53,048 nt of DNA from a candidate division KSB1 bacterium (lineage in GTDB: Bacteria > Zhuqueibacterota > Zhuqueibacteria > Oleimicrobiales > Geothermoviventaceae), in assembly GCA_034506315.1 (NCBI GenBank), contig JAPDPT010000016.1:1-53048 (forward strand). The letters are read 5' to 3'. This document shows, piece by piece, positions 6,625 through 41,984 of the stretch (position 1 is its first letter; each line of letters opens with the position of its first letter). A model generated the notes under the pieces. The model had not been told where the DNA came from and made no database searches. It was given only the letters and a program-made list of their open reading frames with translations. A program made the position numbers and the translations under genes.

Positions 6625-6726
6625 CTCCGCCTACCTCCCTGACTTCGTCGCCTCCTCCCGGCACGAGGCAGGGGCGACAAGGTTCTCGAGGATGATTCGC
6701 CTGCCCAACGAACGATTCAGATCCCT

Positions 6727-27053: not shown

Positions 27054-27068
27054 TGGCACGGGTTTGGC
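27054..27068 (+). promoter_or_regulatory. sigma54-type promoter of the hydrogenase operon
   Basis: TGGCACG at 27054-27060, four bases, then TGGC at 27065-27068 match the sigma54 consensus TGGCACG-N4-TTGC with one mismatch. The essential GG (-24) and GC (-12) pairs are present at the correct ten-base separation. Transcription would start near 27080, 50 nt before the GTG start at 27130. An NtrC-type activator gene lies downstream of the operon, which supports this reading. Confidence 0.7.
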
Positions 27069-27129
27069 GGAAGGTCGCGGTACAAGCGGATCAAGCCCGA
27101 CGCAAGGAGCGGCAAAGAGGAGAAGGTCC

Positions 27130-29112: not shown

Positions 29113-30191
29113 AAGTCGGCGACGTCCTTACGGCGGAGAAAAGCTCGGTGCTGAAGGCGCTGGACGCGCTACGCAGGGACTGGCGTATCATAGGTCCGAC
29201 AAGAGGCGTGGACGGCGAGGTTGTCTTCGCGGAGATCGCCTCCTCGCAGGATCTGTTTTTCGACTACGTCAACGAACTGGACCCCATCAAGAGGTTTTTC
29301 GCTCCCCAGACCGAGCCCTTATTCCGCTTCCGGTTGGAAGGCGTTCCCGAACTCCAGCCTCCGGAACCTCCGCCCAAACAGATTCTTTTCGGTGTTCGTT
29401 CCTGCGACGTGAAAGCCCTGGAACACTGGGACAAGTTCTACGGCGGCAGGTTTGTCGATGAGCTCTACTTTGCCCGACGCGAGAGAACGGTCGTGGTGAG
29501 TTTAGCCTGCAACAAACCGTTACCGACCTGTTTTTGCATCTGCACAGACACCGGACCTTACTTAAAGAGCGGCTTCGACGTCCAGTTGACGGATCTCGGC
29601 GACAGGTACTTGGTCGAGGTCGGGACTGAAAAGGGGCTGGCTGTCCTTGCGCAGGGTGGGCTCGAGGCTACGGAAGCCACCGAAGCCGATCTGAAGCAGC
29701 GGGCAGAACGGATGCGTCAATGCGACGCACAGTTTGTGACCACCGCGTATATGGCCAAAGGTATTATTCAGCTCACCCAGGGCCGGGTGAAACCCGAGCT
29801 GTGGGAGGAGATGGGGCGAGAGTGCTTCAGCTGCGGCGCCTGCACCCACCTCTGCCCGATGTGTACCTGTTTCGATGTCCAGGACTTCATGGAAGATACC
29901 ACCTGCGGCGTGCGGGAACGGTGCTGGGATTCCTGCCAGTACTCCGGCTATACGCGGGAGACGTCCGGTCACAATCCGCGCGCTGCAACCTCGAGGCGCG
30001 TGGAGAGGAGGTTTTTCCACAAGCTGAGTTTCCAGTACATGCAACAGGACGGGCACCACGGATGTGTGGGGTGTGGCCGCTGCATCATCTCCTGCCAGGC
30101 AATGGGTTTGCTGGATTTGCCCGCTGTGCTGAAGCGACTGCGTCGGGAGGGTCAGCCGGTCGAACCGGCGCGGACGTTACCCCAGGATTAG
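29109..30191 (+). CDS. sulfhydrogenase beta-like (HydB/AsrA-type) iron-sulfur subunit
   Basis: This 360-residue cytoplasmic protein carries a core shared by HydB and AsrA: FGVRSCDVKALEHWDKFY near residue 98, then CNKPLPTCFCICTDTGP near 138. A two-cluster ferredoxin domain follows in the C-terminal third (ECFSCGACTHLCPMCTCFDV near 238 and CVGCGRCIISC near 320). In sulfhydrogenases and anaerobic sulfite reductases this subunit passes electrons between a flavin partner and the catalytic unit. It overlaps the molybdopterin gene by ATGA and is 19 bp before the flavin subunit gene, so the three form an electron-input module for the hydrogenase. The CP normally following the last cluster cysteine is replaced by CQ. 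Confidence 0.9.
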   Translation: MKVGDVLTAEKSSVLKALDALRRDWRIIGPTRGVDGEVVFAEIASSQDLFFDYVNELDPIKRFFAPQTEPLFRFRLEGVPELQPPEPPPKQILFGVRSCDVKALEHWDKFYGGRFVDELYFARRERTVVVSLACNKPLPTCFCICTDTGPYLKSGFDVQLTDLGDRYLVEVGTEKGLAVLAQGGLEATEATEADLKQRAERMRQCDAQFVTTAYMAKGIIQLTQGRVKPELWEEMGRECFSCGACTHLCPMCTCFDVQDFMEDTTCGVRERCWDSCQYSGYTRETSGHNPRAATSRRVERRFFHKLSFQYMQQDGHHGCVGCGRCIISCQAMGLLDLPAVLKRLRREGQPVEPARTLPQD

Positions 30192-30210: not shown

Positions 30211-31056
30211 GTGAGCAAGGATCGCGGCAACGGGCACCTATACATGCCTCGGCTGGCCAGGGTCATCCGCATCGCGGACGAAACGTACGATACCAAGACC
30301 TTCACCCTCCGCTTCGTTGACGAGGAGTCCCAACAGCAGTTCTCCTTCCGCTCCGGGCAGTTTGTCGAGGTAAGTGTGTTCGGGGCGGGGGAAGCCCCCT
30401 TCGGTCTGGCTTCTAATCCCAACCGGAAGGAAGACTTCGATATCACCGTGCGGGCTGTTGGGCGGGTGACGCGAGCGCTGCACGAGCGAAAGGTTGGGGA
30501 TGTCATTGGGGTCCGTGGACCCCTGGGCAACTACTTCCCGTTCGAGGAGGTCTTCGGCTACGATATCCTGATCGTGGGGGGCGGCATCGGTCTTCCGCCG
30601 CTGAGATCGCTGATCGAGCCGATGCTCGACGCCAGGGACAAATTTGGCCGGATCATCATCCTCTACGGAGCCCGTACCCCGCAGGACCGGGTGTACAAGC
30701 ACCTCCTCTCCGAGTGGGAGAAGAGGACTGACATCGAGTTCCTTCAGACCGTTGACGTAGGGGACAGCACCTGGACTGGGCACGTCGGCGTCGTCACCAC
30801 GCTTTTTGATAAGATTACCGTCGACCCGGCCAGGACGGTGGCTTTTACGTGCGGTCCCCCGATCATGATCAAGTTTGTGATCCAGGACTTGCTGGCCATG
30901 GGCTTTGACCCCGACCACATCATCTCCACCCTTGAGCGCTACATGAAGTGCGGCGTCGGTAAGTGTGGTCATTGCGCGATCAACCATAAGTACGTGTGCA
31001 CCGACGGGCCGGTCTTCAGCTTTCGGCAGATGCAGGCCTTCCGGGAACCATTGTAG
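30211..31056 (+). CDS. sulfhydrogenase gamma-like (HydG/AsrB-type) FAD/NAD(P)-binding subunit
   Basis: This 281-residue protein has a ferredoxin-reductase fold: an FAD domain (FSFRSGQFVEVSVFGAGEAP, FDITVRAVGRVTRALHE), an NAD(P) domain (IVGGGIGLPPLRSLIEPM, IILYGARTPQDRVYK, AFTCGPPIMIKFV), and a C-terminal [2Fe-2S] motif CGVGKCGHCAI...C. This is the gamma subunit type of sulfhydrogenases and of PyrK-like proteins. It moves hydride electrons between NAD(P)H and Fe-S chains in the cytoplasm. The start is GTG at 30211 behind GGAGG. In the operon it should connect the NAD(P) pool to the HydB-like and molybdopterin-fold proteins, and through them to the membrane hydrogenase. Confidence 0.92.
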   Translation: MSKDRGNGHLYMPRLARVIRIADETYDTKTFTLRFVDEESQQQFSFRSGQFVEVSVFGAGEAPFGLASNPNRKEDFDITVRAVGRVTRALHERKVGDVIGVRGPLGNYFPFEEVFGYDILIVGGGIGLPPLRSLIEPMLDARDKFGRIIILYGARTPQDRVYKHLLSEWEKRTDIEFLQTVDVGDSTWTGHVGVVTTLFDKITVDPARTVAFTCGPPIMIKFVIQDLLAMGFDPDHIISTLERYMKCGVGKCGHCAINHKYVCTDGPVFSFRQMQAFREPL

Positions 31057-31082
31057 AGGCACAGCGGGAGGGGCTCGAAACG

Positions 31083-31901
31083 ATGCCCAGTCGACCAAGA
31101 GGAATCACGGCTCTGACTTGTGGGATGTTCCTGTTGGTCTGGACACGTGTAGGGGCGCAGACGTGTGGCCGTTGCCATGGGCTACCTGGCTTGGTGAGTC
31201 CAGAAGGGAAAGTCGTATCGGTCGACACCGCAACTTATGCTCGCTCCGCCCACGGAAAACTGGAATGTACGAGCTGTCACAGGGGTGAGTGGGTCTATCC
31301 CCATACGGAGAAGAGCGCTCCTTTGACCTGTGGTCAGTGCCATCCGAGCGAGCAACGGGATTACGAACTGGGTGCCCACGGCAAGGCCGCTGCCGCCGGC
31401 AGTCTTGATGTTCCTACCTGCACCACATGTCACGGTGTGCACGATGTGGCGTCCATGGCCAGTCTGGCTGCCCAGCGGCAACCCCTGCAAAACCTCTTGC
31501 TCAACAAGTGCGTGGAGTGCCACACGAACTCCTCCCTGATGCAGAAATACGGGATCCCTCTGGACCGCTTTGCAAGCTACGAATCAAGTGCCCATGGACG
31601 CGCGGACCGATTTGGGTCAGTAGCTGTGGCGCGCTGTGCCACCTGCCATGGGTCACACGCGATCCTCCCGTCGGCCGACCCTCATTCCCCAGTGAACCCG
31701 ACGAATCTGGCAGGGACCTGTGGCAAGTGCCACGAGGACGCCGAGCGGTTTGTGGGGCGCCGGTACCACGTTGTTGCCGAGGCCATGCCAAGCCCGGTCA
31801 CCTATGACCGGTTGCTGCACTCGTTCTTCGGTATACTGCTGGCGTTCGGGATCCTTGCTACGGTTTTCTGCGCGGTTGCGGCATTTCGTGGAGAGAGATG
31901 A
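31083..31901 (+). CDS. heptaheme c-type cytochrome with C-terminal membrane anchor
   Basis: The protein has 272 residues with a signal peptide (ALTCGMFLLVWTRVGAQ). Seven CxxCH heme-binding motifs follow: CGRCH, CTSCH, CGQCH, CTTCH, CVECH, CATCH and CGKCH. A C-terminal hydrophobic helix (FFGILLAFGILATVFCAVAA) should hold it in the inner membrane with the hemes in the periplasm. The ATG at 31083 has GGGAGGGG upstream; an earlier ATG at 30996 would lie inside the preceding gene. It overlaps the maturation protease gene by ATGA. A periplasmic multiheme protein within an operon of cytoplasm-facing hydrogenase subunits is unusual and suggests a link to quinones or extracellular acceptors. Confidence 0.92.
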   Translation: MPSRPRGITALTCGMFLLVWTRVGAQTCGRCHGLPGLVSPEGKVVSVDTATYARSAHGKLECTSCHRGEWVYPHTEKSAPLTCGQCHPSEQRDYELGAHGKAAAAGSLDVPTCTTCHGVHDVASMASLAAQRQPLQNLLLNKCVECHTNSSLMQKYGIPLDRFASYESSAHGRADRFGSVAVARCATCHGSHAILPSADPHSPVNPTNLAGTCGKCHEDAERFVGRRYHVVAEAMPSPVTYDRLLHSFFGILLAFGILATVFCAVAAFRGER

Positions 31902-32368
31902 GCTCCCTTATGGACTCATTGCGGGAATGGGCTGGTGGCAAGTCCGTGGTGGTCGTCGGTGTCGGCAACGAGTTACGAGGAGACGACGGGGCAGGGGTAG
32001 CTGTGGTGCGCGAACTGCAGCGCAAAGGCCTGCGGGCTGTGGCCGCAGGGGAGACGCCTGAGCTGTACACCGACGTGATCAAGGGTCTGGCTTGCCCCAA
32101 AGTGTTGTTCGTGGACGCCGTGGACCTTGGGAAAAACCCCGGCGACGTGGCGTTGCTCAGAGCAGATGAGTTAGCGGACAACCGTTGGGATGCTCACCGA
32201 CCCTCCCTTTCCTTGGTGATGCGCTATTTGGAGCAGGAGGGGGCAGGCGAATGTCTCCTCCTCGGAATTCAGCCCGCGCAGATTACCTTCGGGCAGTCGA
32301 TGTCCGCAGCCGTCCGCACAGCTGTGGAACAGATTTCCGCTTTGCTCTGGGAACTGCTGGCTAAATGA
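31898..32368 (+). CDS. hycI: [NiFe] hydrogenase maturation endopeptidase (HycI-like)
   Basis: This protein of 156 residues has the HyaD/HycI protease pattern: VVGVGNELRGDDGAGVAVVR near residue 18 with the nickel-sensing Asp/Glu, VLFVDAVDLG near 69, and DAHRPSLSLVMRYLEQ near 93. The enzyme removes the C-terminal peptide of the hydrogenase large subunit after nickel insertion. Its substrate in this operon, the large subunit at 35970, ends with DPCFSCTER plus 33 residues, the same layout as E. coli HycE, which is cut after this Arg. It overlaps both neighbours by ATGA. Confidence 0.9.
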   Translation: MSSLMDSLREWAGGKSVVVVGVGNELRGDDGAGVAVVRELQRKGLRAVAAGETPELYTDVIKGLACPKVLFVDAVDLGKNPGDVALLRADELADNRWDAHRPSLSLVMRYLEQEGAGECLLLGIQPAQITFGQSMSAAVRTAVEQISALLWELLAK

Positions 32369-33846
32369 CCGAGGGCCTCGAGGCGATGGATGCGTTGATC
32401 CTCATCCTGTTTGTGGTTCCTGTGGCTGGAGCAATCGGAGCGGCGCTTGTTCGCGATCGAAAGACGGGGGATGGAATTGCGGTCCTGGCGGCGGGCCTTC
32501 CCCTGATCGCGACCGCCTACCTGGCGGCCACGGGCGCTCCGGTTGCCCGTGAGCGGCTCGTGTTCACCTTCCCATGGCTCCAGGGGCTAAAAGTCCCTGG
32601 ATTGTTCGGATACCAGCTCGATCCCCTCGGCCTTCTCTTGCTCACGGTGGTAGAGCTTCTCGGCTTCTTGGTCGTCGTCTACGCCACCCGATATCTCGGA
32701 CGGGGAAACAGGGAGCATCCTACGGACGAGGGCAAGCCGCGCCATCACTTCTGGATGCTCCTGTTCATCGCCTCAATGACCGGAGTTGCCCTGTCACCCA
32801 ATCTACTCCAGCTCTATCTATTCTGGGAGATGACCACCGTATGCTCGTGGGCTCTAATCTCCCACTACCGCAACGAGCCCTCACTGCGTGCCGGTTTCAA
32901 GGCCGTTCTGATGACCGTCTTTGGAGGCCTGTTCTTTTCGGTCGCCCTGGTCATTCTTTACGTGAACACAGGCTCCTTCGATTTTGCAGCGCTGGACCGG
33001 ATATCGCCCGAGCTTCGCTCGCTGGTCTTCCTTCTTTTGTTGGTCGCCGCATGGGCCAAGTCCGCACAGGTCCCCTTCTACACGTGGCTCCCGGATGCAA
33101 TGGAAGCTCCCACCACGGTGAGCATGTACCTGCACGCGGCTGCGATGGTCAAGGCTGGGGTCTTCCTTATCGCCCGAGTGGCTATCGCCAATTATCACCT
33201 CTCTTTCCGCTCTGGCCTCCTGGTGGGTATCATGGCCGTGGTGACCATGCTGGTCGGCGTCTATCTATTCTTCTTCCAGGATGACCTGAAGCGTCTTCTT
33301 GCCTACTCGACGATTACGCACCTCGCGTACATTTTCTTTGGGGCGGCGCTGGGCATTATGGGGTCACAGACGGGGCTCCTGGGAGGCCTGCTTCACATCA
33401 TCAATCACGCGATGGGTAAAGCCGTTCTCTTCTTGTGCGTGGGGGCGATCAGTTACACAACCGGGCTGCGTTCGATCCGAGAGCTGAGCGGGCTCAGCTA
33501 CCGCGCGCCCCTGGTGTCGATTGCCTTTTTCGTGGGAATGCTGACCATCACTGGCGTGCCACCGTTTGCAGGGTTCTGGAGCAAGTTCTTCCTGCTCAGT
33601 GGCGCGATCAATCTTGGTGGCACGGTCGGATGGTTTTTGCTGATCCCGTTTTTCCTGGAAGTGGTGGTGGCGTTTGCCTGGTTTCTGCGGGTTGGGCACA
33701 GCGTGTTTTTCGGAGAGGTATCGCCGGTGGCGGCCCAGGCTAAGGATCCACCCAGGCTTATGGCTTTGGCGCTGATCGTGCTGTCTGTTATGTGTTTGGC
33801 CGCCCCAGTGGTCGGCTTGCCCATCATCAATATGATCCGATTCTGA
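32365..33846 (+). CDS. hyfD: hydrogenase antiporter-like membrane subunit (HyfD/NuoL/M/N family)
   Basis: This 493-residue protein with about 14 membrane helices belongs to the proton-pumping family shared by complex I, Mrp antiporters and group 4 hydrogenases. Typical charged residues are in place: the TM5 glutamate in LYLFWEMTTVCSWAL (about residue 155), the TM7 lysine in AAWAKSAQVPFYTWLPDAM, AMVKAG in TM8, and the TM12 lysine in HIINHAMGKAVLF. It should conduct H+ or Na+ driven by the redox arm. Three antiporter-like proteins occur in this operon, as in E. coli hyf. The hyfD label for this copy rests on length and is less secure than for the others. It starts by ATGA overlap with the protease gene. 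Confidence 0.85.
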   Translation: MTEGLEAMDALILILFVVPVAGAIGAALVRDRKTGDGIAVLAAGLPLIATAYLAATGAPVARERLVFTFPWLQGLKVPGLFGYQLDPLGLLLLTVVELLGFLVVVYATRYLGRGNREHPTDEGKPRHHFWMLLFIASMTGVALSPNLLQLYLFWEMTTVCSWALISHYRNEPSLRAGFKAVLMTVFGGLFFSVALVILYVNTGSFDFAALDRISPELRSLVFLLLLVAAWAKSAQVPFYTWLPDAMEAPTTVSMYLHAAAMVKAGVFLIARVAIANYHLSFRSGLLVGIMAVVTMLVGVYLFFFQDDLKRLLAYSTITHLAYIFFGAALGIMGSQTGLLGGLLHIINHAMGKAVLFLCVGAISYTTGLRSIRELSGLSYRAPLVSIAFFVGMLTITGVPPFAGFWSKFFLLSGAINLGGTVGWFLLIPFFLEVVVAFAWFLRVGHSVFFGEVSPVAAQAKDPPRLMALALIVLSVMCLAAPVVGLPIINMIRF

Positions 33847-33870: not shown

Positions 33871-35928
33871 ATGGGAGCATTGGCGCACTACGGTTGGGCC
33901 CTCGGTATCCTCCTCGTAGGGGTCGTGGTGACGTTTTTTGTCGGTCTGCGGACGCGCAGGATCGGTGGGCTCGCCCTCGGCTTTGCCGCCCCCGCATGTG
34001 CCCTTGCCTTTCTGGCGGCCGTGGAGGTTTTCGTGAGCGGGACCGTTTCGAGTCGTCCGCTCTTTACTGTGCCAGGCCTCGGCGCCGTGTTGATTGTGCG
34101 TTTGGATCAGCTGAGCGCTCTGTTCCTGGGTATCATCTCCGTAGTATGTTTTTTGGCCATCCTGTATTCCGTCCGCTACATGGAGATTCCCTGGTTCGCG
34201 GAGCTTTCCTTAGCCGGATATTACCCACCCCTCCTGCTTTTCACCTGCGCTACTATGGCCGTCGTCGGCATGGTCGACATGTTCTTCTTTTTCCTGGCGT
34301 GGGAGTTCATGACCCTCTCCTCTTACACGCTCGTGATCTTCGACCGCAAGCGGAAGGAGAGGCTGCGCGCTGGCTTTAAGTACTTCCTGATCATGCACAT
34401 TGCCACCGGCCTCATGTTTCTGGGTGCGCTTGTAATCTATTCGTTTGGAAAGTCGTTTACCTTTGACGGACTGCGGGTTACCCTCCAGGCAATTGTAGAA
34501 ACGCATCCCGCGACCGTTCACTTCGCTTTGATTTGCTTCTTCCTGGGCTTCGCCACTAAGGCGGGTGTTCTGCCCTTCGGCGACTGGCTCCCGGACGCGT
34601 ATCCCGCCGCGCCAAGTCCCGCGTCCTCCGCCTTTTCCGGCACCATGTCCAAATTAGGTGTGTACGGCCTGGTGCGAGTCTTCTACGAGATCCTCCCCGC
34701 CAGTAGTTACTCCAAGACGTACGGGCTCGTCATCGCCCTATTCGGGACCCTCAGCATCTTCGTCGGCACCATGACCGCCATGATGCAGGAGGATTCCAAA
34801 CGCCTCCTCAGCTTCCACGTGATCGGGCAGGTCGGGTATATGCTGCTGGGTGTGGGAGTGGGGGTCTATTTCCTGCCCACCAATGCGAACCTTGCCCTGG
34901 TGGCGATCTCTGCGGGTCTTTTCCATTTGCTGAACAATGCCATTTACAAGTCGAGTCTCTTCCTCAATGCCGGCTCGATCTTTTACAAGACGGAGACGCG
35001 AAATCTCAACTGGATCGGGGGGCTCGCGAAGCTCATGCCGGTGAGCGCGGCTACGGCGGTGGTCGCTTCGCTGAGCATCGCAGGGATCCCCCCGTTCAAT
35101 GGATTCGCAAGCAAGTGGCTGATCTACCAAAGTTCCGTATTCGGCGGCATGCGCATGCCCCTATTCATGGGCTTCGCCATCATCGCGATCTTCGTGTCCG
35201 CTTTGACGCTGGCCTCTTTTGTGAAGTTTTTCGGCGCCAGCTTCTTCGGTAAATTGAAGGCCCCCAAGACGGACGTCGAGAGGGGGGATGTGCCTCTCTC
35301 GATGCAGGTACCCCAGCTGGTGCTGTCCGGGCTGTGTGTTTTCTTCGGCCTGGCGCCTCTTTTGCCCTTGAGGCTTATCTACTCGAGCCTTACAGCAATT
35401 CGCTCCCAGCTTGGGGCCGCCGGGTTCAGGGAGCTGTTTTCGGGGAAGGCTTCGTCGATCGGCCTGTCATTCGGGGACGGAGTCATCGCCAACTGGAATC
35501 CCGTTTGGATGGGTTTGGCCCTGGCGGGATTCGCTTTGCTCGCGTGGGGGGTCATGCGCGCGGGTCGTGCCCCGCGACGAACGGTGGCGACTTGGTACTG
35601 CGGTGAACCGCACGGCGATCTGGAAACGCACTACCCGGCACACGGTTTCTACCAGCCTTTCAAACAGTTCTTCCGCGTGAGGATCGGGAAATACGAATGG
35701 GAGGGTGTCTACCTGACGATCAAGTACCCACCGATCCGACTGCGAGAGGACAACTGGCTTACGCGTCTTATCAGCCTGGATCGTTGGCTATTCTATCCCG
35801 TAGTCAGGGGCTTTTACCAGATTCTGGAGTGGTTCGCCGGCTCCCATGTAGGGATTCCGCACGTGTACCTGACCTGGGCCATCCTGGGGGTGGTGGCGGC
35901 GATCGCACTGGTTTTCAGTCTCCACTGA
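33871..35928 (+). CDS. hyfB: hydrogenase antiporter-like membrane subunit (HyfB/HycC-like)
   Basis: This 685-residue protein has about 16 membrane helices. The antiporter core is intact: glutamate in FFFLAWEFMTLSSYTLVIFD, lysine in CFFLGFATKAGVLPFGDWLP, MSKLGVYGLVRVFYE, and lysine in HLLNNAIYKSSLF. The long C-terminal region with TWYCGEPHGDLETHYPAHGF and PFKQFFRVRI is characteristic of HycC/HyfB and separates it from NuoL, NuoM and NuoN. GAGGAG precedes the ATG. It probably forms a second ion channel of the membrane arm next to the NuoH-like subunit. Confidence 0.9.
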   Translation: MGALAHYGWALGILLVGVVVTFFVGLRTRRIGGLALGFAAPACALAFLAAVEVFVSGTVSSRPLFTVPGLGAVLIVRLDQLSALFLGIISVVCFLAILYSVRYMEIPWFAELSLAGYYPPLLLFTCATMAVVGMVDMFFFFLAWEFMTLSSYTLVIFDRKRKERLRAGFKYFLIMHIATGLMFLGALVIYSFGKSFTFDGLRVTLQAIVETHPATVHFALICFFLGFATKAGVLPFGDWLPDAYPAAPSPASSAFSGTMSKLGVYGLVRVFYEILPASSYSKTYGLVIALFGTLSIFVGTMTAMMQEDSKRLLSFHVIGQVGYMLLGVGVGVYFLPTNANLALVAISAGLFHLLNNAIYKSSLFLNAGSIFYKTETRNLNWIGGLAKLMPVSAATAVVASLSIAGIPPFNGFASKWLIYQSSVFGGMRMPLFMGFAIIAIFVSALTLASFVKFFGASFFGKLKAPKTDVERGDVPLSMQVPQLVLSGLCVFFGLAPLLPLRLIYSSLTAIRSQLGAAGFRELFSGKASSIGLSFGDGVIANWNPVWMGLALAGFALLAWGVMRAGRAPRRTVATWYCGEPHGDLETHYPAHGFYQPFKQFFRVRIGKYEWEGVYLTIKYPPIRLREDNWLTRLISLDRWLFYPVVRGFYQILEWFAGSHVGIPHVYLTWAILGVVAAIALVFSLH

Positions 35929-35969: not shown

Positions 35970-37658
35970 ATGACAACCGCAGAGGTAATCCAAAAGCTCA
36001 GGGAAAGATTCGGAGGGAAAATCGCAGAGGCCGCGACACCCGTCCCGGACATGGTGATGATCACCGTGTCCCGCGACGACGCGGTCGAAGTGGCCGATTT
36101 TCTTTTCAACGATTGGAGGGCTCGCTTCATCATCGCCGCCGGGACCGACTACCGGGAGGTAAGCGGGGAGTACCTCGTGGACTACAATTTCTCCCTCGCG
36201 GCGGACCACATTTTCCTGACCATGCGCGTGCGGATCGGTGCTGCCGATCCCTGGATCTACGCGATAACCCCGAGGGTGCCGGCGGCCAACTGGGCGGAGC
36301 GCGAAATCCAGGACATCCTCGGAATCCGGCTGGTCGGCCACCCCGATCCACGCCGTCTTGTCCTATCGGATGATTGGCCCGAAGGCTTACACCCGCTCCG
36401 CCGCGACGTCCCTTACGACATCTGGCCTGAGCACAATGAGGTGCGTAAGCCCCCCATGGCCAATCCGCCGGAGGGGGCCAGTGTCGTGCCCATCGGGCCT
36501 TTCTTCCCCGTGCTCGAAGAACCTGCCTATTTCCGCGTGTTCGTGGAAGGGGAGAAGGTCGTAGGCTGTGACTACCGCGGGTTTTACAATCACCGCGGCA
36601 TTGAGAAGCTCGCCGATAGCCAGCTGAACTACAACCAGGTCCCCTTCCTTGCCGAGCGCATCTGCGGCATATGAGGGTTCGTGCACAGTACGGGGTACTG
36701 TCAAGCACTGGAAAAAGCAGCAGAGATTGAGGTCCCACCGAGGGCGCGCTTCATCCGGACGATCATCCTCGAGCTGGAGCGCATTCACAGCCATCTGCTC
36801 TGGCTGGGGATTGCGGGGCATATCATCGGCTTCGATACCATCCTGATGCAGGCGTGGCGAATCCGCGAGCCCGTTATGTGGCTTGCGGAAGAGATCACCG
36901 GCAACCGCAAGCTTTACGGAATGAACATTGTGGGCGGAGTCCGCCGCGACATCCCGGCTGAGCTTCATCCGAAGATCTTGGAGGTGATGGACCACGTCGA
37001 AAAGGAAACCCGGGCTGTGCTGAACGCTGTGGTGGACGACTCGACGATCCGGATGCGTCTGGAAGGCGTGGGCAAAGTGCCCAATGAAGAGGCCATCGCC
37101 CACTCCATTCTGGGCCCCTCGGCGCGCGGTTCAGGTGTCGCTATCGACATCCGTGCCGACCACCCCTATGCGGCCTATGCGGAGACGGGCGTGAATGTCA
37201 TTGTCGAGACGGGCGAGGACATTTGGGCGCGCACCGTTGTCCGGATCAAGGAGACATTGGAGTCGATCCGCATTGTGCGCGACGCCCTGGCGATGATGCC
37301 CAGGGGTCCCATTCAGGCGGTGATCGACAAGCCGATTCCGCCGGGCCGAGTGGCGTGCTCCTCGGTGGAGGCCCCGCGCGGAGAGACCCATCACTTCGTA
37401 ATCACCAGCGAGGAGCCCCGACCCTACCGGTGGAAAGCAAGGGCGCCGACATTTCAGAACCTCCAGGTGGTACCTCTCGCCATCTTAAACGAAACGATTG
37501 CAGATGTGCCCATCACGCTGGGCAGCTTCGACCCGTGCTTCTCCTGCACAGAGCGGGTGGAGGCTGTCGATGTCCGCAACGGCCAGCTTAAGGTCTACTC
37601 GAAGAGAGAGCTTGAGGAACTCTCCAGGGCGTTGACCCGCCGACTTCGCGGTCGTTGA
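35970..37658 (+). CDS. hyfG: group 4 [NiFe] hydrogenase large subunit with NuoC-like domain, predicted selenocysteine at TGA 36672-36674
   Basis: The reading frame begins at ATG 35970 (GAGTGGAG upstream) and reaches the stop at 37658 if the TGA at 36672-36674 is decoded, giving 562 residues. Residues 1-165 are NuoC-like (WAEREIQDILGI, HPDPRRLVLSDDWPEGLHPL); the rest is the NuoD-like nickel subunit, as in HycE and HyfG. Around the TGA the protein reads AERICGI-Sec-GFVHSTGYCQALE, while HycE has AERVCGICGFAHSTAY. The TGA thus takes the second cysteine of the N-terminal nickel motif (position 235), a residue that bridges Ni and Fe. The C-terminal motif DPCFSC (C523, C526) is intact, followed by a cleavable 33-residue tail. 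A hairpin fitting the bacterial SECIS pattern follows the TGA. The alternatives are nonsense mutation or base error. Confidence 0.85.
36681..36708 (+). promoter_or_regulatory. candidate bacterial SECIS hairpin in hydrogenase large-subunit mRNA
   Basis: ACAGTAC (36685-36691) and GTACTGT (36695-36701) form a perfect 7-bp stem around the loop GGG. Below it GTGC (36681-36684) pairs with GCAC (36705-36708), leaving a CAA bulge on the 3' side. The loop begins 17 nt after the TGA and starts with G. Both properties fit the published bacterial SECIS consensus (loop 16-37 nt from the UGA, G within its first two bases). Function is inferred from structure and place. Confidence 0.7.
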
Positions 37659-37688: not shown

Positions 37689-38594
37689 ATGAACCAGAAC
37701 GTCATCCTGGGTGTCGTGAATGTCGTTCTTGTGTTCCTGCTCTCGCCTCTGCTGGAAGGGACGCTGCGCAAGCTCAAAGCATTCGTGCACTCGCGCGTCG
37801 GTCCACCCGTCTACCAGCCGTATCTGGATCTGCTGAAGCTTCTCGGCAAGGAGGAGGTGGAGTGCGAGGGCACGGTCCTCTTCCGCTGGTCGCCAGTTGT
37901 GGCTCTGGCGGCGGTGTTGTCTGTAGCGCTCCTGACGCCAGTCGGTCTGGTACCTCCCCTGGACGCGGCGGGCGAGGTGATCGTGTTCGTCTACCTTATC
38001 ACACTGAGCGGCGTGGCGGTAATGGCCAGCGGAATTGGCTCGGGTAGCCCGTATGGGATCGTCGGCTCTGCCCGGGAGATGATGCTGATCCTGACGGTGG
38101 AGCCGGTGTTGGCCATTGCGCTCATTACGGTCGCCGTGAAGGCAGGCTCAATGAAGTTCTCGGATATCCTCGCCTATCAGACGAGCCATCCGTATTCGCT
38201 TTCCATGGTGCTGGTCACGTTTTCGCTCTTCATGGCCGTATTGGCTCAACTGGCCAAGCTCCCGTTCGACATTGTGGAGGCGGAGACGGAGATCATGGAG
38301 GGGCCGTTCATCGAGCAGAGCGGACCCCGCCTGGCGTTGTTCAAATGGAGCTTCTACGCCAAGGAGCTGATCTTCGCCTCTCTTCTGGCAACGATCTTTT
38401 TCCCATGGCCGCGGATCAGCGAGCCGGTTCTTACGGTAGTGGTTCATCTGCTCAAGATTGTCCTGCTGCTGCTCATCGTGGGGGTCATTGACGCGGTGAA
38501 TCCCCGACTGCGCATCGACCAGGCAATACGTTTCTACGGCGCGCTGATCTTTGTGGCCTTTGCCGGCTTGGCGTTCGCCATTGTCGGATCGTAA
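37689..38594 (+). CDS. hyfC: hydrogenase membrane anchor subunit (HyfC/HycD, NuoH-like)
   Basis: This 301-residue protein of about eight helices matches NuoH, the subunit at the join of membrane and soluble arms. Diagnostic segments are LRKLKAFVHSRVGPPVYQPY near residue 27 with the LLGKEEV that follows, GSGSPYGIVGSAREMMLILT near 118, and LPFDIVEAETEIMEGPFIEQ near 194 with the conserved acidic residues that link electron transfer to ion pumping. The gene starts behind GGAGG 30 bp after the large subunit. Confidence 0.95.
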   Translation: MNQNVILGVVNVVLVFLLSPLLEGTLRKLKAFVHSRVGPPVYQPYLDLLKLLGKEEVECEGTVLFRWSPVVALAAVLSVALLTPVGLVPPLDAAGEVIVFVYLITLSGVAVMASGIGSGSPYGIVGSAREMMLILTVEPVLAIALITVAVKAGSMKFSDILAYQTSHPYSLSMVLVTFSLFMAVLAQLAKLPFDIVEAETEIMEGPFIEQSGPRLALFKWSFYAKELIFASLLATIFFPWPRISEPVLTVVVHLLKIVLLLLIVGVIDAVNPRLRIDQAIRFYGALIFVAFAGLAFAIVGS

Positions 38595-38626: not shown

Positions 38627-39115
38627 ATGTTCAAGGGGAAGATCAAGGAAGCACGGATTTGTTTCGCCCATCCTCGGGTAACGTTGAAATACCCGTTCGA
38701 GCCGCTGGAGCCTCCGGACGGGTTCCGGGGCCGAATCCAGGTGGACGTCGAGAAGTGTATCGGCTGCGGGGGATGCGGTAACGTTTGTCCCTCCCGGCTC
38801 ATTCGGTTCTACGACGAGGGCGATCGCACGCGGATGGAATTCATCTTGGACCGCTGCACGTACTGCGGCCGCTGCGCCGACGTCTGTCCCGAAAAAGCCG
38901 TCACGATGACCAAGGAATTCGAGACGGCCACGGACAATCTGGAGGACTTGTACATCGTGCAGGAGCTGTACATGGGCACCTGCAATCGCTGTGGTCGGTG
39001 TTTCGAGACCGAGAACTGGATCGACAAGATTCCGACGCGCCGCCACCGGGAGGGTGCTCTGTTTGTTGGGCCGGCCATGCCGCACGCGAAGCCGGTCGGG
39101 GAGGTAGGAGGATGA
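38627..39115 (+). CDS. hyfH: hydrogenase ferredoxin-like subunit (HyfH/HycF, NuoI-like)
   Basis: This 162-residue protein has two [4Fe-4S] motifs, CIGCGGCGNVCPS near residue 44 and CTYCGRCADVCPEKAV near 83. It carries electrons between the input module and the small subunit. A third cysteine group, CNRCGRCF, lies near residue 121 and lacks a normal fourth ligand spacing. HycF and HyfH also have extra C-terminal cysteines, so a metal or structural site is possible. It overlaps the next gene by ATGA. Confidence 0.92.
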   Translation: MFKGKIKEARICFAHPRVTLKYPFEPLEPPDGFRGRIQVDVEKCIGCGGCGNVCPSRLIRFYDEGDRTRMEFILDRCTYCGRCADVCPEKAVTMTKEFETATDNLEDLYIVQELYMGTCNRCGRCFETENWIDKIPTRRHREGALFVGPAMPHAKPVGEVGG

Positions 39116-39777
39116 CGGAACAAACCCTCGTGGTCCTGACGCTGGCCTTCTTGATCGTGAGCATTTTTACGGTGGAGCTTCGCAACCTTCGCGTCACGGT
39201 CTTCTTCTACTGGATGCATTCCGTGCTCCTGTTCCTGACAATTGGCGCCTACGCGTACGTAATGAAGAACCCATCCCTCTACTTTTGGTGCGCTACAGTC
39301 TTCCTTTTCAAGATGGTGATCATCCCAACGCTGATGGCGACCTTTCTCAAGCGCGTCCCGGTCTATGAGTTTAGGCCGGTTTTGGGGTTTGCTGTCTCGC
39401 TGGTCATCATCTCGGCTGTGGAGATCGTGTTCTTCAACCTGTTCCGGCATTACGCCTACCTGCTGGCGCCCGCTGGCCATTATCAGCAGGAGCCGACTCG
39501 CTCCCTGCTGGCGGGTGCGTTTACCGTGTTTACCCTGGGACTTTACGCCCTCCTGACGCGCAGAGACGCCCTAAAGACGGTAATCGGTCTGGCTCTGATG
39601 GAGAACGGGGTTCACCTGGTGCTCCTGGCCCTCGCTTCTCAGCTACCGGAAACGACAATGATTGGCATCCTGACAGACGTGGTCGTGGTGGTGGGACTGC
39701 TTCTCTACATTAGCACCACCATCTACGAGGTATTTGGGTTCACCGATACCGCACGGTTGTCGGAACTGAGGCGCTGA
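39112..39777 (+). CDS. hyfE: hydrogenase membrane subunit HyfE-like
   Basis: This 221-residue protein has about seven hydrophobic helices. The C-terminal 120 residues resemble NuoK and MrpC (LKTVIGLALMENGVHLVLLA, then GILTDVVVVVGLLLYISTTI). The length matches HyfE (216 residues in E. coli). The start ATG at 39112 overlaps the stop of the ferredoxin gene. An earlier in-frame start upstream lies inside that gene and is rejected. It likely contributes a half-channel in the membrane arm between the NuoH-like and antiporter-like parts. Confidence 0.9.
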   Translation: MTEQTLVVLTLAFLIVSIFTVELRNLRVTVFFYWMHSVLLFLTIGAYAYVMKNPSLYFWCATVFLFKMVIIPTLMATFLKRVPVYEFRPVLGFAVSLVIISAVEIVFFNLFRHYAYLLAPAGHYQQEPTRSLLAGAFTVFTLGLYALLTRRDALKTVIGLALMENGVHLVLLALASQLPETTMIGILTDVVVVVGLLLYISTTIYEVFGFTDTARLSELRR

Positions 39778-39795: not shown

Positions 39796-41310
39796 ATGGT
39801 GGAATCCTTGCTGCCCGTATGGGTGATCCTCCTGCCCGTGATGGGTTCCCTCGCCGTCTTTGGCCTCGGCTTCACTCCGGCGCGCCGAATGAGGGAAGCT
39901 CTCGCCTTGGGCGTGGAGGTCGTGGCTTTTCTGATTTCGGCCAACGTGGCGCGGCAGGTATGGGCGGGTGCGCGTCTGACAAGCCTGAACATGTCCCTGT
40001 ACATCGGCGGGCTCAACGCTCTGATGCTGATCCTCGTCCACGCCATGGTCCTGGTGATTCTTGTTCAGGCGGTCCCGTACATGAGGAAAGAACTGGTTTC
40101 GGGGCGCACCACGGACGGCCGGCTTACGCTCTTCTACGCCCTGGTCCTTCTGTTTGCGGGCACGATGAGCTGGACGGTCACCACCAACAACATGGTCATG
40201 CTTTATGTGGCGATGGAGGGAAGCACCCTCGCTACAGCTCTCCTGGTAGCGTTCTACCGTGCGCGGGCCTCACTTGAGGCTGGATACAAGTACGTGCTCT
40301 TGGTGGTGACCGGAATGACGTTCTCCCTCTTTGGCATCATTCTGGTCTACGCGGCAGGGGTACAGCATCTGGGCTCCGGCCGAAGTGCCCTCATGATGAC
40401 CGAGATGGGGAAGATCGCTAACGCGATCCCGAAAGACATTGCGCTCATGGCCACCGCGTTCATGACCTGCGGGTTCGCCACGAAGGCGGGACTTGTACCG
40501 TTCCACGCGTGGCTTCCGGACGCCCATGCCGAAGCGCCGACGCCGATCAGCGCGCTCCTGTCGGGCCTGGTCATCAAGATTGGGGCATACGCCCTGGTCC
40601 GAACGGTGACGATCTTCGCGCCCCACTACCGGGCCATCGTCCTGTTTATCGCCATCCTGACGTCCGTGAGCATGGTGGTTGGGATCGTGATGGCCTTGGT
40701 CCAGGACGATCTCAAGCGACTTCTTGCCTATTCCAGTGTATCCCAGATCAGCTACGTGTTTGAGGGGTTGGGGCTCGGAACATACTTGGGGATCTACGGC
40801 GGGCTCTTCCATCTCGTGAATCACACGATTATCAAGGCCCTGCTGTTTCTGAGCGTAGGGTCCATCATGTACGCCACCGGCGGGAAACGCAAGATCTCCG
40901 AGCTCGGCGGACTGGCCGGCAAGATGCCCATCACCGCGGTTGCGTTTTTCATCGGTGCTCTTTCGATTGGGGGCCTGCCGCCCTTCAACGGCTTCATGAG
41001 CAAGTTTACGATCTTTCTCGCGGTAGGAGAGGCAAAGCTCCTGTGGGCGGCGGGGATCGGCATCTTCACAGGAATGCTGACCATTAGCTGCCTGGTCTGG
41101 GCCGCCTATCGAGTCTTCTGGAGAAAGCCCGCTGTTGAGGTGGCATCAACCAATCCTGGCGAGGTTCGCGAGGTCCCAGTGATGATGTGGGTAAGCCTGG
41201 TGATCCTTGCCACGGCGTGTGTGGTGATCGGCCTGTATCCACAAGTTTTGTACCCCGCACTGGACGCCGCGACGCGCGCCGTTCTCCAGATCTGGGCCGG
41301 CGGTTATTGA
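39796..41310 (+). CDS. hyfF: hydrogenase antiporter-like membrane subunit (HyfF-like)
   Basis: This 504-residue protein with about 14 helices is the third antiporter-like subunit of the operon. The key residues are present: glutamate in MLYVAMEGSTLATALLVAFY, lysine in CGFATKAGLVPFHAWLPDAH, LVIKIGAYALVRTV, and lysine in HLVNHTIIKALLF. The start has AGGGGAAGG. Its position between the HyfE-like and small-subunit genes equals that of hyfF in the E. coli operon order. It should add an ion-translocating module at the far end of the membrane arm. Confidence 0.93.
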   Translation: MVESLLPVWVILLPVMGSLAVFGLGFTPARRMREALALGVEVVAFLISANVARQVWAGARLTSLNMSLYIGGLNALMLILVHAMVLVILVQAVPYMRKELVSGRTTDGRLTLFYALVLLFAGTMSWTVTTNNMVMLYVAMEGSTLATALLVAFYRARASLEAGYKYVLLVVTGMTFSLFGIILVYAAGVQHLGSGRSALMMTEMGKIANAIPKDIALMATAFMTCGFATKAGLVPFHAWLPDAHAEAPTPISALLSGLVIKIGAYALVRTVTIFAPHYRAIVLFIAILTSVSMVVGIVMALVQDDLKRLLAYSSVSQISYVFEGLGLGTYLGIYGGLFHLVNHTIIKALLFLSVGSIMYATGGKRKISELGGLAGKMPITAVAFFIGALSIGGLPPFNGFMSKFTIFLAVGEAKLLWAAGIGIFTGMLTISCLVWAAYRVFWRKPAVEVASTNPGEVREVPVMMWVSLVILATACVVIGLYPQVLYPALDAATRAVLQIWAGGY

Positions 41311-41363: not shown

Positions 41364-41861
41364 ATGTTAGCGAGACTCTGCAGAAAGGCGTTTCCCAAAG
41401 CCCTGTGGGTCTACCACGCGAATGCCGGCGCCTGCAACGGCTGCGATATCGAAGTGATCAATGTCCTGACCCCTTACTACGACGCCGAGCGCTTTGGCAT
41501 CAAACTGGTGGGCTCGCCTCGGCACGCGGACGTGATTCTGGTTACGGGCGCCGTTACTCGCCAGGTAGCTCCGGCATTGCGGCGTCTATTGGAAGCCACA
41601 CCCGATCCCAAGCTGGTGTTCGCGATCGGATCGTGCGCGTGCGGCGGGGACATGTGGTTCGACACGTACAACATCTGGGGAGGGGCGAACAAGGTCGTCC
41701 CGGTGAACTATTACGTGCCCGGATGTCCGCCGCGTCCAGAAGCCATTCTGTACGGTGTCGCTGTGGCGCTCGGCCTGGCACCGAAGAAGGTAGCGAGGAG
41801 GGAGCAGCGAGACTTCCCGCACTTTGAGGAGCCGACCTCAAAGTTCGTGCGAAGTCCCTGA
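41364..41861 (+). CDS. hyfI: [NiFe] hydrogenase small subunit (HyfI/HycG, NuoB-like)
   Basis: This 165-residue protein carries the proximal [4Fe-4S] cluster that hands electrons to the nickel site. Ligand motifs are complete: ACNGCDIE (C24, C27), AIGSCACGGDMWFDTYN near 93, and YVPGCPPRPEAILYG near 118. The fold and short length match group 4 small subunits, without a signal peptide, so the enzyme faces the cytoplasm. It is the last gene before a strong terminator. GGAGAGAGG precedes the ATG. Confidence 0.95.
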   Translation: MLARLCRKAFPKALWVYHANAGACNGCDIEVINVLTPYYDAERFGIKLVGSPRHADVILVTGAVTRQVAPALRRLLEATPDPKLVFAIGSCACGGDMWFDTYNIWGGANKVVPVNYYVPGCPPRPEAILYGVAVALGLAPKKVARREQRDFPHFEEPTSKFVRSP

Positions 41862-41884: not shown

Positions 41885-41926
41885 GAAGAGAAGGGTGCGG
41901 GCCATTCCTGCACCCTTTCTTCGTTT
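41885..41926 (+). terminator. rho-independent terminator of the hydrogenase operon
   Basis: AAGGGTGC (41891-41898) pairs with GCACCCTT (41910-41917) around an 11-nt loop. The stem extends by GAAGA/TCTTC with one bulged base, and a T-rich tail TCTTCGTTTT follows. It lies 29 nt after the small-subunit stop and separates the structural genes from the sensor kinase gene. Confidence 0.85.
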
Positions 41927-41953
41927 TGCAGCGGCTGTGGAAAACCGTACATT
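41926..41953 (+). promoter_or_regulatory. possible sigma70-type promoter of the regulatory genes
   Basis: TTGCAG (41926-41931), a 16-nt spacer and TACATT (41948-41953) each match four of six consensus bases. A promoter is expected here because a strong terminator stands just upstream and the kinase ATG is at 41985. The match itself is weak. Confidence 0.35.
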
Positions 41954-41984
41954 AGAGCGATTAGAGATCGAGGGCGATCCTAAG

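What the first reader, a model, noticed from the sequence alone, without database searches (positions are those of the whole stretch)
35970..37658. Predicted selenocysteine at a bridging ligand (N-terminal motif) of a group 4 [NiFe] hydrogenase
The hydrogenase large subunit reads RICGI-TGA-GFVHS in one continuous frame. The TGA replaces only the second cysteine of the N-terminal nickel motif, and both flanks align to HycE/HyfG without any gap. All other ligands (first Cys of the motif, DPCFSC) are intact, and the operon is otherwise complete, which argues against decay. Known [NiFeSe] hydrogenases place Sec in the C-terminal motif, replacing a terminal ligand. Here Sec would replace a residue that bridges Ni and Fe. 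I know of no described enzyme with this arrangement, although I cannot search for one.
Basis: partly seen in the sequence, partly recalled or inferred. Interest (0 to 1): 0.95.

Follow-up and report, generated by a model that had tools for sequence, protein, structure and literature searches.

The report
Hydrogenase with predicted selenium-bridged nickel–iron site
A bacterial hydrogenase gene carries a UGA codon that 19 related genes (itself included) from two groups of bacteria share at exactly the same place, next to a conserved RNA hairpin, and it is predicted to insert selenocysteine where related enzymes have the cysteine that likely bridges nickel and iron, a place for selenium that our literature searches did not find in any natural hydrogenase.

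Summary
TGA at 36672-36674 is codon 235 of a 562-residue HycE/HyfG-type large subunit; the frame is open on both sides and the other three ligands are present. Nineteen distinct orthologues (15 in the window's class, window included, and 4 Chloroflexota) have TGA at this codon. At E<=1e-150, 14 of 82 genomes of the phylum match and all 14 have it; 120 of 120 listed database homologues have Cys there. Of 178 codon columns with an invariant residue, six use a single codon, and all six lie at -1 to +9 of the UGA; five are what the published bacterial SECIS model needs for this peptide. The window's genome holds selA (fragment), selB, tRNA-Sec (UCA) and a selD with its own in-frame TGA. The second Cys of this motif bridges Ni and Fe in known enzymes, so Sec would be a bridging selenolate; described natural [NiFeSe] enzymes carry Sec in the UxxC motif. 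Bridging-site Sec is known to us only from laboratory variants of E. coli hydrogenases. Against: the closest relative's assembly lacks selB and a clear tRNA-Sec, and no protein data exist.

The parts
35970..37658 (+). Predicted group 4 [NiFe]-hydrogenase large subunit (HycE/HyfG type), 562 aa with one in-frame TGA; PF00329 + PF00374 + PF00346
   Evidence: AlphaFold model (Cys at 235) pLDDT 84.7, best fold match 7z0s_E (E. coli formate hydrogenlyase large subunit), TM 0.89
36657..36674 (+). N-terminal nickel motif RICGI-U
   Evidence: motif and TGA the same in 19 of 19 orthologues
36672..36674 (+). UGA codon 235, predicted selenocysteine in place of the second Cys of the motif
   Evidence: conserved in 19 of 19; Cys in 120 of 120 database homologues listed
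36675..36716 (+). Region with the predicted bacterial SECIS element (42 nt after the UGA that were folded)
   Evidence: meets the bSECIS model quoted in PMC13188914
36685..36701 (+). SECIS hairpin: 7-bp stem ACAGUAC/GUACUGU, GGG loop, 17 nt between UGA and loop
   Evidence: 7 bp in 11 and 6 bp in 8 of 19; fixed codons CAC AGT ACG nnn TAC TGT
37530..37547 (+). C-terminal nickel motif DPCFSC (Cys523, Cys526 intact)
37557..37655 (+). C-terminal extension after DPCFSCTER, probably removed by the HycI-type protease (inferred by analogy with HycE, recalled)
   Evidence: Sequence; protease gene
31898..32368 (+). HycI-type hydrogenase maturation protease
   Evidence: PF01750; TIGR00142 108.6 bits, below its 119.1 cut-off; superfamily model TIGR00072 over its cut-off
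32365..33846 (+). Proton-pump-like membrane subunit, HyfD type
   Evidence: hydrogenase 4 subunit D, 510.7 bits, cut-off 430
33871..35928 (+). Proton-pump-like membrane subunit, HyfB type
   Evidence: best NCBIfam match hydrogenase 4 subunit B, below its cut-off
37689..38594 (+). NuoH/HyfC-type membrane subunit
   Evidence: PF00146
38627..39115 (+). HycF-type 2x[4Fe-4S] subunit
   Evidence: Fer4 domains, two stretches; HycF likeness by place in the operon
39112..39777 (+). HyfE-type membrane subunit
   Evidence: PF00420; NF008556 (hydrogenase 4 membrane subunit) on the longer ORF, 108.7 bits, below its cut-off of 136
39796..41310 (+). Proton-pump-like membrane subunit, HyfF type
   Evidence: best NCBIfam match hydrogenase 4 subunit F, below its cut-off
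41364..41861 (+). Hydrogenase small subunit (PF01058) with CNGC...GSCACGG...PGCPP
27064..29112 (+). Molybdopterin oxidoreductase in the same run of genes; Thr where formate dehydrogenases have Sec/Cys (RLTHGP)
29109..30191 (+). Fer4_22 iron-sulfur subunit, probable electron carrier
30211..31056 (+). FAD/NAD-binding flavoprotein subunit, probable NAD(P)H entry point

Best explanation
The in-frame UGA of this predicted group 4 [NiFe]-hydrogenase large subunit is most likely read as selenocysteine by the cell's own SelB and tRNA-Sec, guided by a conserved hairpin that starts 11 bases after the UGA, so that selenium would replace the sulfur that bridges nickel and iron in related enzymes. Shown by sequence: the UGA and the hairpin codons are conserved across two bacterial groups, the other three ligands and four catalytic or canopy residues are kept, and selA (a fragment), selB, selC and selD are in the genome. 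Inferred: that the UGA is decoded as Sec and not only as a stop; that Sec235 takes the bridging place that the second Cys of this motif has in known structures; and that the membrane complex evolves H2 or takes it up while moving protons. The probable benefit, untested, is a softer and more easily re-reduced bridging ligand, which would speed recovery from oxidation by O2 or sulfide or change the balance between H2 production and uptake.
For: Conservation: 19 distinct orthologues with TGA at the same codon. Cys pairs: of the 120 database homologues listed (out of 7,931 matches), 119 matched a motif search with Cys and the 120th (P0107) has Cys on reading; seven more distant group 4-like paralogues in the window's own class keep Cys there, and the four of their genomes that were tested have SelB over its cut-off. 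RNA signal: among 178 columns with an invariant degenerate residue, 6 have a single codon in all 19 sequences and all 6 lie at codons -1, +4, +5, +6, +8, +9 (6 of 9 columns in -1..+10 against 0 of 169 elsewhere; Fisher p 2e-9). The five after the UGA follow from the bSECIS model: CAC, AGT, TAC and TGT keep the stem paired, and ACG is the only Thr codon that puts a G at the start of the loop (deduction mine). Between the two Sec groups these five codons agree in 300 of 300 comparisons, against 44% of synonymous comparisons outside -1..+16. Machinery in the own genome: selB 367 bits (C13:51025-52902), tRNA-Sec with UCA anticodon next to it, selA fragment over its cut-off, selD with in-frame TGA in an RCAG-U-ASK motif. 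All 4 Chloroflexota genomes have SelB over its cut-off.
Against: No protein, selenium or transcript data. The nearest genome, G001 (same genus, 92% identical protein, called 100% complete), has selA and a TGA-bearing selD but neither SelB over cut-off nor a tRNA-Sec above 47.2 bits. Of the 15 TGA-bearing genomes of the window's class, 4 (G001, G049, G053, G059) lack a SelB over cut-off (G049 and G059 hold pieces), 5 (G001, G013, G018, G055, G059) lack a tRNA-Sec hit above 60 bits (only 114 of 326 to 1,239 candidates were scored per genome), and G057 lacks SelD over cut-off. Every one of the 24 genomes tested has SelA over cut-off, so machinery does not single out the TGA carriers. As a free-folding RNA the 45-mer is not unusually stable (codon-shuffle P 0.11 to 0.90 in 17 sequences; z -1.4, -0.2 and +0.5 for three lengths); its minimum-energy fold differs from the hairpin in 5 of 19 (L010, L011, L012, L091, L092), and L096 misses the model's energy limit (-6.6 against -7.5). 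The stem pairs do not covary, since their bases hardly vary. The fixed ATA at -1 is unexplained. The range -1..+10 was chosen after looking.
Confidence: 0.92

Rival explanations
1. The TGA is a sequencing error or a nonsense mutation in a decaying gene.
For: The window's genome is a draft in 95 contigs, and a TGA in one genome alone would be weak evidence.
Against: 19 distinct sequences share it, invariant residues run on to codon +303 after it, the TGA forms are 54-92% identical to the window's protein where measured over most of its length, and synonymous sites next to the TGA are frozen.
Confidence: 0.01
2. The large subunit is split: translation stops at UGA and restarts just after it (GTG at 36681, with GAGGG before it), giving two chains that assemble.
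For: A GTG lies at codon +3 in the window, and the fixed ATA makes an ATGA overlap in 19 of 19.
Against: Codon +3 is GTG in only 12 of 19 (GTT in 6, GTA in 1). In the other 7 the next in-frame ATG, GTG or TTG is 30 to 34 codons away (5) or absent within the 39 codons scanned (L019, partly unread there, and L091); the ATG of ATGA is in another frame and its ORF varies from 13 to 122 codons. A split there would leave the second ligand of the motif missing.
Confidence: 0.03
3. UGA is read through but as Cys (or Trp) and not as Sec, for example by mischarged tRNA-Sec under selenium shortage.
For: The tools cannot tell which residue is inserted; Cys stands at this place in 120 of 120 listed homologues.
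Against: A genome with SelA, SelB, SelD and tRNA-Sec would be expected to insert Sec; TGA ends 11 of the 15 neighbouring genes looked at, so it is an ordinary stop too, and a plain Cys codon would serve better if Cys were wanted.
Confidence: 0.04
4. Sec is inserted, but its value is regulatory: the UGA makes synthesis of the hydrogenase depend on selenium, and the bridging position as such is neutral.
For: Sec variants of E. coli Hyd-1 (at any of the positions) and Hyd-2 were less active than the native enzymes in H2 oxidation (PMC9961374 and PMC11212049, passages read).
Against: Long conservation, with no Cys orthologue among the 14 phylum genomes that match at E<=1e-150, speaks for a catalytic or protective benefit.
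Confidence: 0.15

Closest known systems
Natural [NiFeSe] hydrogenases (HysA of Desulfovibrio/Desulfomicrobium; FrhA and VhuU of methanogens)
   Same: Selenocysteine as a nickel ligand of a [NiFe]-hydrogenase large subunit, decoded from UGA
   Different: Sec stands in a UxxC motif (table 1 of PMC13188914, FrhA and MvhA/VhuA/VhuU rows) and replaces a terminal, non-bridging nickel ligand (the counterpart of Cys546 of Hyd-2; PMC11212049, passage); here it is in the N-terminal motif (CxxU) at the bridging ligand, and the enzyme is a membrane-bound group 4 type
E. coli HycE (formate hydrogenlyase) and HyfG, group 4 [NiFe]-hydrogenase large subunits
   Same: Same domains, ligand and canopy residues (E184, S274, R470, D521 opposite E193, S283, R478, D529 of HycE) and operon make-up
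   Different: All four ligands are Cys in HycE
Engineered Cys-to-Sec variants of E. coli Hyd-1 (Evans 2021, not held, known through papers that cite it) and Hyd-2 (Evans 2024, PMC11212049, passages read)
   Same: Sec placed in turn at each of the four ligands (61, 64, 546, 549 in Hyd-2), position 64 being the counterpart of residue 235 (by motif, recalled)
   Different: Made in the laboratory by UAG recoding, group 1 enzymes, lowered activity; here evolution has kept it
Other selenoproteins with CxxU motifs (HdrA, GrdA, MvhD/VhuD)
   Same: Sec as the last residue of a CxxU motif (table 1 of PMC13188914)
   Different: Not hydrogenase large subunits; no Ni-Fe site
CooK of Desulfovibrio vulgaris (PMC5042321, passages)
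   Same: A TGA codon in a gene of a membrane-bound energy-conserving hydrogenase complex, for which those authors considered Sec
   Different: A membrane subunit, a mutation within one species, no metal ligand shown

Membership tests
Bacterial selenoprotein | In-frame UGA opposite a conserved Cys of homologues, in more than one sequence | tested here: met
   19 TGA orthologues; Cys in 120 of 120 listed homologues
Bacterial selenoprotein | bSECIS element after the UGA (loop 3-9 nt, stem 4-16 bp, G in first two loop positions, spacing 16-37 nt, energy <= -7.5 kcal/mol; PMC13188914) | tested here: met
   Window: 3-nt loop GGG, 7-bp stem, spacing 17, -12.4 kcal/mol. Geometry met in 19 of 19; 45-mer energy met in 18 of 19, in 5 of these 18 by a fold other than the hairpin
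Bacterial selenoprotein | Sec machinery in the genome | tested here: met
   Own genome: selA (fragment at contig end), selB, selD, tRNA-Sec; incomplete in some relatives, see evidence against
Bacterial selenoprotein | Sec found in the protein | not testable with these tools
   Needs 75Se labelling or mass spectrometry
Group 4 [NiFe]-hydrogenase large subunit | N- and C-terminal nickel motifs, complex I 30 kDa/49 kDa-type domains, HycE-like fold | tested here: met
   one ligand is the predicted Sec. No classification by HydDB was run
Group 4 [NiFe]-hydrogenase large subunit | Operon with small subunit, NuoH-like and antiporter-like membrane subunits, maturation protease | tested here: met
Group 4 [NiFe]-hydrogenase large subunit | Hydrogenase activity and Ni-Fe content | not testable with these tools
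   No protein data
Classical [NiFeSe] hydrogenase (Sec at the terminal ligand of the C-terminal motif) | Sec at the first residue of the C-terminal UxxC motif | tested here: not met
   Cys523 there; the UGA is at residue 235; NF033181 and NF045518 match only residues 189-278, far below their cut-offs

The most novel reading that the evidence does not exclude
A naturally evolved lineage of membrane-bound group 4 hydrogenases whose Ni-Fe centre is held by a bridging selenolate, [Ni(mu-SeCys)(mu-SCys)Fe], kept in KSB1-type bacteria and in Chloroflexota and read by a SECIS hairpin inside the active-site motif; in at least one Chloroflexota operon it stands beside a formate dehydrogenase-like gene that also has an in-frame UGA at its Sec site, a formate hydrogenlyase with selenium at both catalytic centres.
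Probability: 0.85. Interest if true: 0.92.

Novelty: new variant of a known kind. Interest (0 to 1): 0.86.

Why it matters
It would be a new selenoprotein subfamily and the first natural hydrogenase known to us with selenium in the Ni-Fe bridge, so nature would have tried a second answer to what selenium does in hydrogenases. As far as our searches show, the question whether a bridging selenolate helps catalysis, oxygen tolerance or direction of reaction has been put only with engineered E. coli enzymes, which had lowered activity; native enzymes that keep it make the question directly testable. It also means that ordinary annotation would cut these large subunits in two, so hydrogen metabolism of KSB1-type bacteria and some Chloroflexota may be missed.

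Tried and rejected
Sequencing error, pseudogene and split-gene readings were tested and rejected (see rivals). A changed genetic code was rejected because 11 of the 15 neighbouring genes looked at end in TGA. Rfam at gathering thresholds found nothing in the window, which says nothing either way for a short bacterial SECIS. RNA stability as a test was uninformative; codon fixation was the informative test. A check whether G001 has lost selB or merely has an assembly gap failed: the neighbouring gene of the own genome's selB has only 39% and 36% matches in G001 and G002, so synteny could not be used, and the own SelB as query found in G001 only matches of 32-38% identity that by length look like other translation GTPases (not tested further). 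The DNA of the closest Cys homologues (P0002-P0008) was not available through the tools left, so whether they keep remains of the hairpin codons, which would show Sec-to-Cys reversion, is open. Weak matches with stop codons inside (33% identity and less) were not followed up, except L025, whose aligned part holds no stop and no nickel ligands. The list was cut by the tool after its best rows.

Full report
What is there. The window (53,048 bases, contig 16 of a 3.41-Mb draft genome in 95 contigs) holds a run of genes for a membrane-bound hydrogenase complex: a HycI-type protease (31898), HyfD- and HyfB-like pumps (32365, 33871), the large subunit (35970-37658), a NuoH-like subunit (37689), a HycF-like ferredoxin (38627), HyfE- and HyfF-like subunits (39112, 39796) and the small subunit (41364). 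Upstream lie a molybdopterin oxidoreductase, a Fer4_22 protein, a flavoprotein and a multihaem cytochrome. The large subunit reads in one frame from 35970 to 37658 with one internal TGA at 36672-36674, codon 235. GC at third positions is the same before and after it (0.77 and 0.76). The protein aligns with E. coli HycE over residues 8-552 (E 3e-128), and its AlphaFold model (made with Cys at 235; mean pLDDT 84.7, under 50 at residues 179-184 and 525-531) matches HycE best (TM 0.89, 40% identity).

The TGA is conserved. Of 60 genomes searched (the own and 59 relatives), 15, the own included, hold an orthologue (64-100% identity) and all 15 have exactly one TGA, at the same codon; the next best match is 45%. 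In a search of 82 genomes of the phylum 14 matched at E<=1e-150 and all 14 had it (the 15th, G047, is in pieces). A pattern scan of the species-genome collection (84,980 species by its description) found 14 loci: 9 are identical for 200 bases each side to loci already in hand, L102 shows the same sequence around the UGA as L006, and 4 are Chloroflexota (L090, L091, L092, L096). That makes 19 distinct sequences. Of the 10 named records of the first group 5 are called candidate division KSB1, 1 Calditrichota and 4 just bacterium; I write KSB1-type for the group. The pattern was written for the peptide R-(I/V)-C-G-I-TGA-G-x-(V/A)-H-(S/T) and its close codon neighbours, so other arrangements would be missed. 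A search of 346 genomes drawn from the class of L092 gave 4 matches at E<=1e-150: L092's own gene with TGA, and three of 43-44% identity with Cys; 400 genomes drawn from its phylum gave 2 at E<=1e-120, both already among those 4. The tool scored only the best 3 or 4 candidates of each of these genomes.

Cys is the usual residue. A search of 5.8 billion predicted proteins gave 7,931 matches and listed the best 120 (57-64% identity); 119 matched a motif search with Cys at this place and the last, P0107, has Cys on reading. That database is of predicted proteins, so full-length TGA forms can hardly appear in it. In the window's own class seven group 4-like paralogues (L020-L024, L026, L028; 41-44% identity) have Cys at 232 and 235, and six of them, L028 being cut short, also at 523 and 526; the four of their genomes that were tested (G026, G022, G010, G044) have SelB over cut-off.

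The RNA signal. Over the 19 sequences, 178 columns (filled in at least 15) have an invariant residue with more than one codon. Only six use one codon throughout: ATA at -1 and CAC, AGT, ACG, TAC, TGT at +4, +5, +6, +8, +9. That is 6 of 9 such columns in -1..+10 against 0 of 169 elsewhere (Fisher p 2e-9; the range was chosen after one search had shown the pattern, and columns are treated as independent). The hairpin they spell, ACAGUA(C)...(G)UACUGU, has 7 base pairs in 11 and 6 in 8 of 19, a 3- or 5-base loop with G at its first or second place, and 17 or 16 bases between UGA and loop. The published bacterial model asks for a 3-9 base loop, a 4-16 bp stem, a G in the first two loop places, a spacing of 16-37 and -7.5 kcal/mol or lower (PMC13188914, legend of figure 2, passage read). 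Geometry is met by 19 of 19. The energy of the 45-mer is met by 18 of 19, but in 5 of these (L010, L011, L012, L091, L092) by a fold other than the hairpin; L096 has -6.6. CAC, AGT, TAC and TGT are the codons that keep the stem fully paired, and ACG is the only Thr codon with the needed G; this deduction is mine. When the same peptide is recoded at random with each gene's codon usage (2,000 draws), the 17-base hairpin is as stable as observed in 0 to 6.7% of draws (17 of the 19 sequences tested, the fragments L019 and L091 left out). The energy of the whole 45-mer is not unusual (P 0.11-0.90; z-scores). Between the two groups the five codons agree in 300 of 300 pairs and ATA in 60 of 60, against 44% of synonymous comparisons outside -1..+16 and 58% at +10..+16. 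So the core seems held by selection and not by recent transfer of the whole gene.

Machinery. The window's genome has SelB (367 bits, cut-off 242) and next to it tRNA-Sec (70.4 bits, gathering 47; ARAGORN reads anticodon UCA), a SelA fragment at a contig end (280.7 bits, cut-off 267.9) and SelD (363.7 bits, cut-off 125) that itself has an in-frame TGA in RCAG-U-ASK, the UxxK site of SelD. In the 24 genomes tested, SelA was over its cut-off in 24, SelD in 23 and SelB in 20. Among the 15 TGA carriers SelB is over cut-off in 11; G049 and G059 hold pieces, G053 no clear piece, G001 none. tRNA-Sec is above 60 bits in 10 of 15; lower hits are probably other tRNAs (not tested), and only 114 candidates were scored per genome. 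G057 lacks SelD over cut-off. Three of the four without SelB are in 330 or more contigs, but G001 is in 30 and is called complete, and its lack is unexplained. All four Chloroflexota genomes have SelB over cut-off; their selA, selD and tRNA-Sec were not searched for.

Evolution. In a maximum-likelihood tree of 62 proteins (18 Sec, without the fragment L019, and 44 Cys: 41 of the 120 homologues and 3) the Sec forms fall into two supported groups, 14 of the window's kind, sister to Cys forms P0002-P0008, and 4 Chloroflexota; 0 of 200 bootstrap trees make them one side of a branch. Either Sec arose twice, or it is old and was replaced by Cys in between. The near-identical hairpin does not decide, because the model dictates most of its codons. 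The fixed ATA is not dictated and is shared (47 of 773 other Ile codons are ATA), which hints at common descent or at a further unknown need.

How it probably works. In [NiFe]-hydrogenases nickel is held by four Cys, two of which bridge to iron (PMC9961374, passage; for E. coli formate hydrogenlyase PMC9474812, passages). That the second Cys of each motif is the bridging one is established knowledge that I recall. Residue 235 is that place in the N-terminal motif; Glu184, Ser274, Arg470 and Asp521 correspond to catalytic and canopy residues of HycE and are invariant in the 36-sequence alignment. So a mature enzyme would have one bridging selenolate. The HycI-type protease and the C-terminal extension suggest normal maturation. 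The upstream flavoprotein and Fe-S proteins suggest that electrons come from NAD(P)H or ferredoxin, since the formate dehydrogenase homologue has Thr in place of its Sec/Cys; this is inference.

What is known. A 2026 review lists 119 selenoprotein families or subfamilies; its two hydrogenase alpha rows are of UxxC type and no group 4 large subunit is there (PMC13188914, table 1 read). Nine literature searches (listings, with passages of 15 papers opened in all) found no natural hydrogenase with Sec in the N-terminal motif; the library holds open-licence papers only. A TGA in CooK, a membrane subunit of another energy-conserving hydrogenase, was discussed as possible Sec (PMC5042321, passages). 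Laboratory precedents exist: Sec at each of the four ligands of E. coli Hyd-1 (Evans 2021, not held, known from PMC9961374 and PMC11212049) and Hyd-2 (PMC11212049, passages read), with lowered H2 oxidation. The finding is thus a new variant of a known kind: selenium in a hydrogenase, at a ligand where nature was not known to put it.

Noticed in passing
L092 minus strand, base 669 of the reverse complement (gene about 5617-7269 and upstream): Beside the Sec hydrogenase of an Anaerolineales genome lies a formate dehydrogenase-like gene with an in-frame TGA in CARL-U-HSP, the known Sec site: possibly a formate hydrogenlyase with Sec at both catalytic centres.
   Followed up: partly
27064-29112: The window's formate dehydrogenase homologue has Thr (RLTHGP) where formate dehydrogenases have Sec or Cys, so it probably does not oxidise formate; the flavoprotein at 30211 may be the electron entry.
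   Followed up: partly
36669-36671: The Ile codon before the UGA is the otherwise uncommon ATA in 19 of 19, forming ATGA; the overlapping ORF is not conserved (13-122 codons), so the reason is unknown.
   Followed up: partly
41895-44033: Fusion of an [FeFe]-hydrogenase-like domain with Fe-S domains and a histidine kinase, followed by two response regulators (44104, 44677 with sigma-54 domain): possibly H2- or redox-sensing control of the operon.
   Followed up: no
46403-47911: NapC/NirT-type cytochrome domain joined to an FGE-sulfatase domain in one frame, a pairing that looks unusual.
   Followed up: no
30996-31901: Multihaem c-type cytochrome gene inside the hydrogenase operon, overlapping its neighbours.
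   Followed up: no
L122 (G000 contig 51, 12500-15500): The genome's selD has an in-frame TGA at its UxxK site (RCAG-U-ASK), a second likely selenoprotein.
   Followed up: partly
G001 (genome of L006): The closest relative has selA, TGA-bearing selD and the TGA hydrogenase, but no SelB over cut-off and no clear tRNA-Sec in its assembly.
   Followed up: partly
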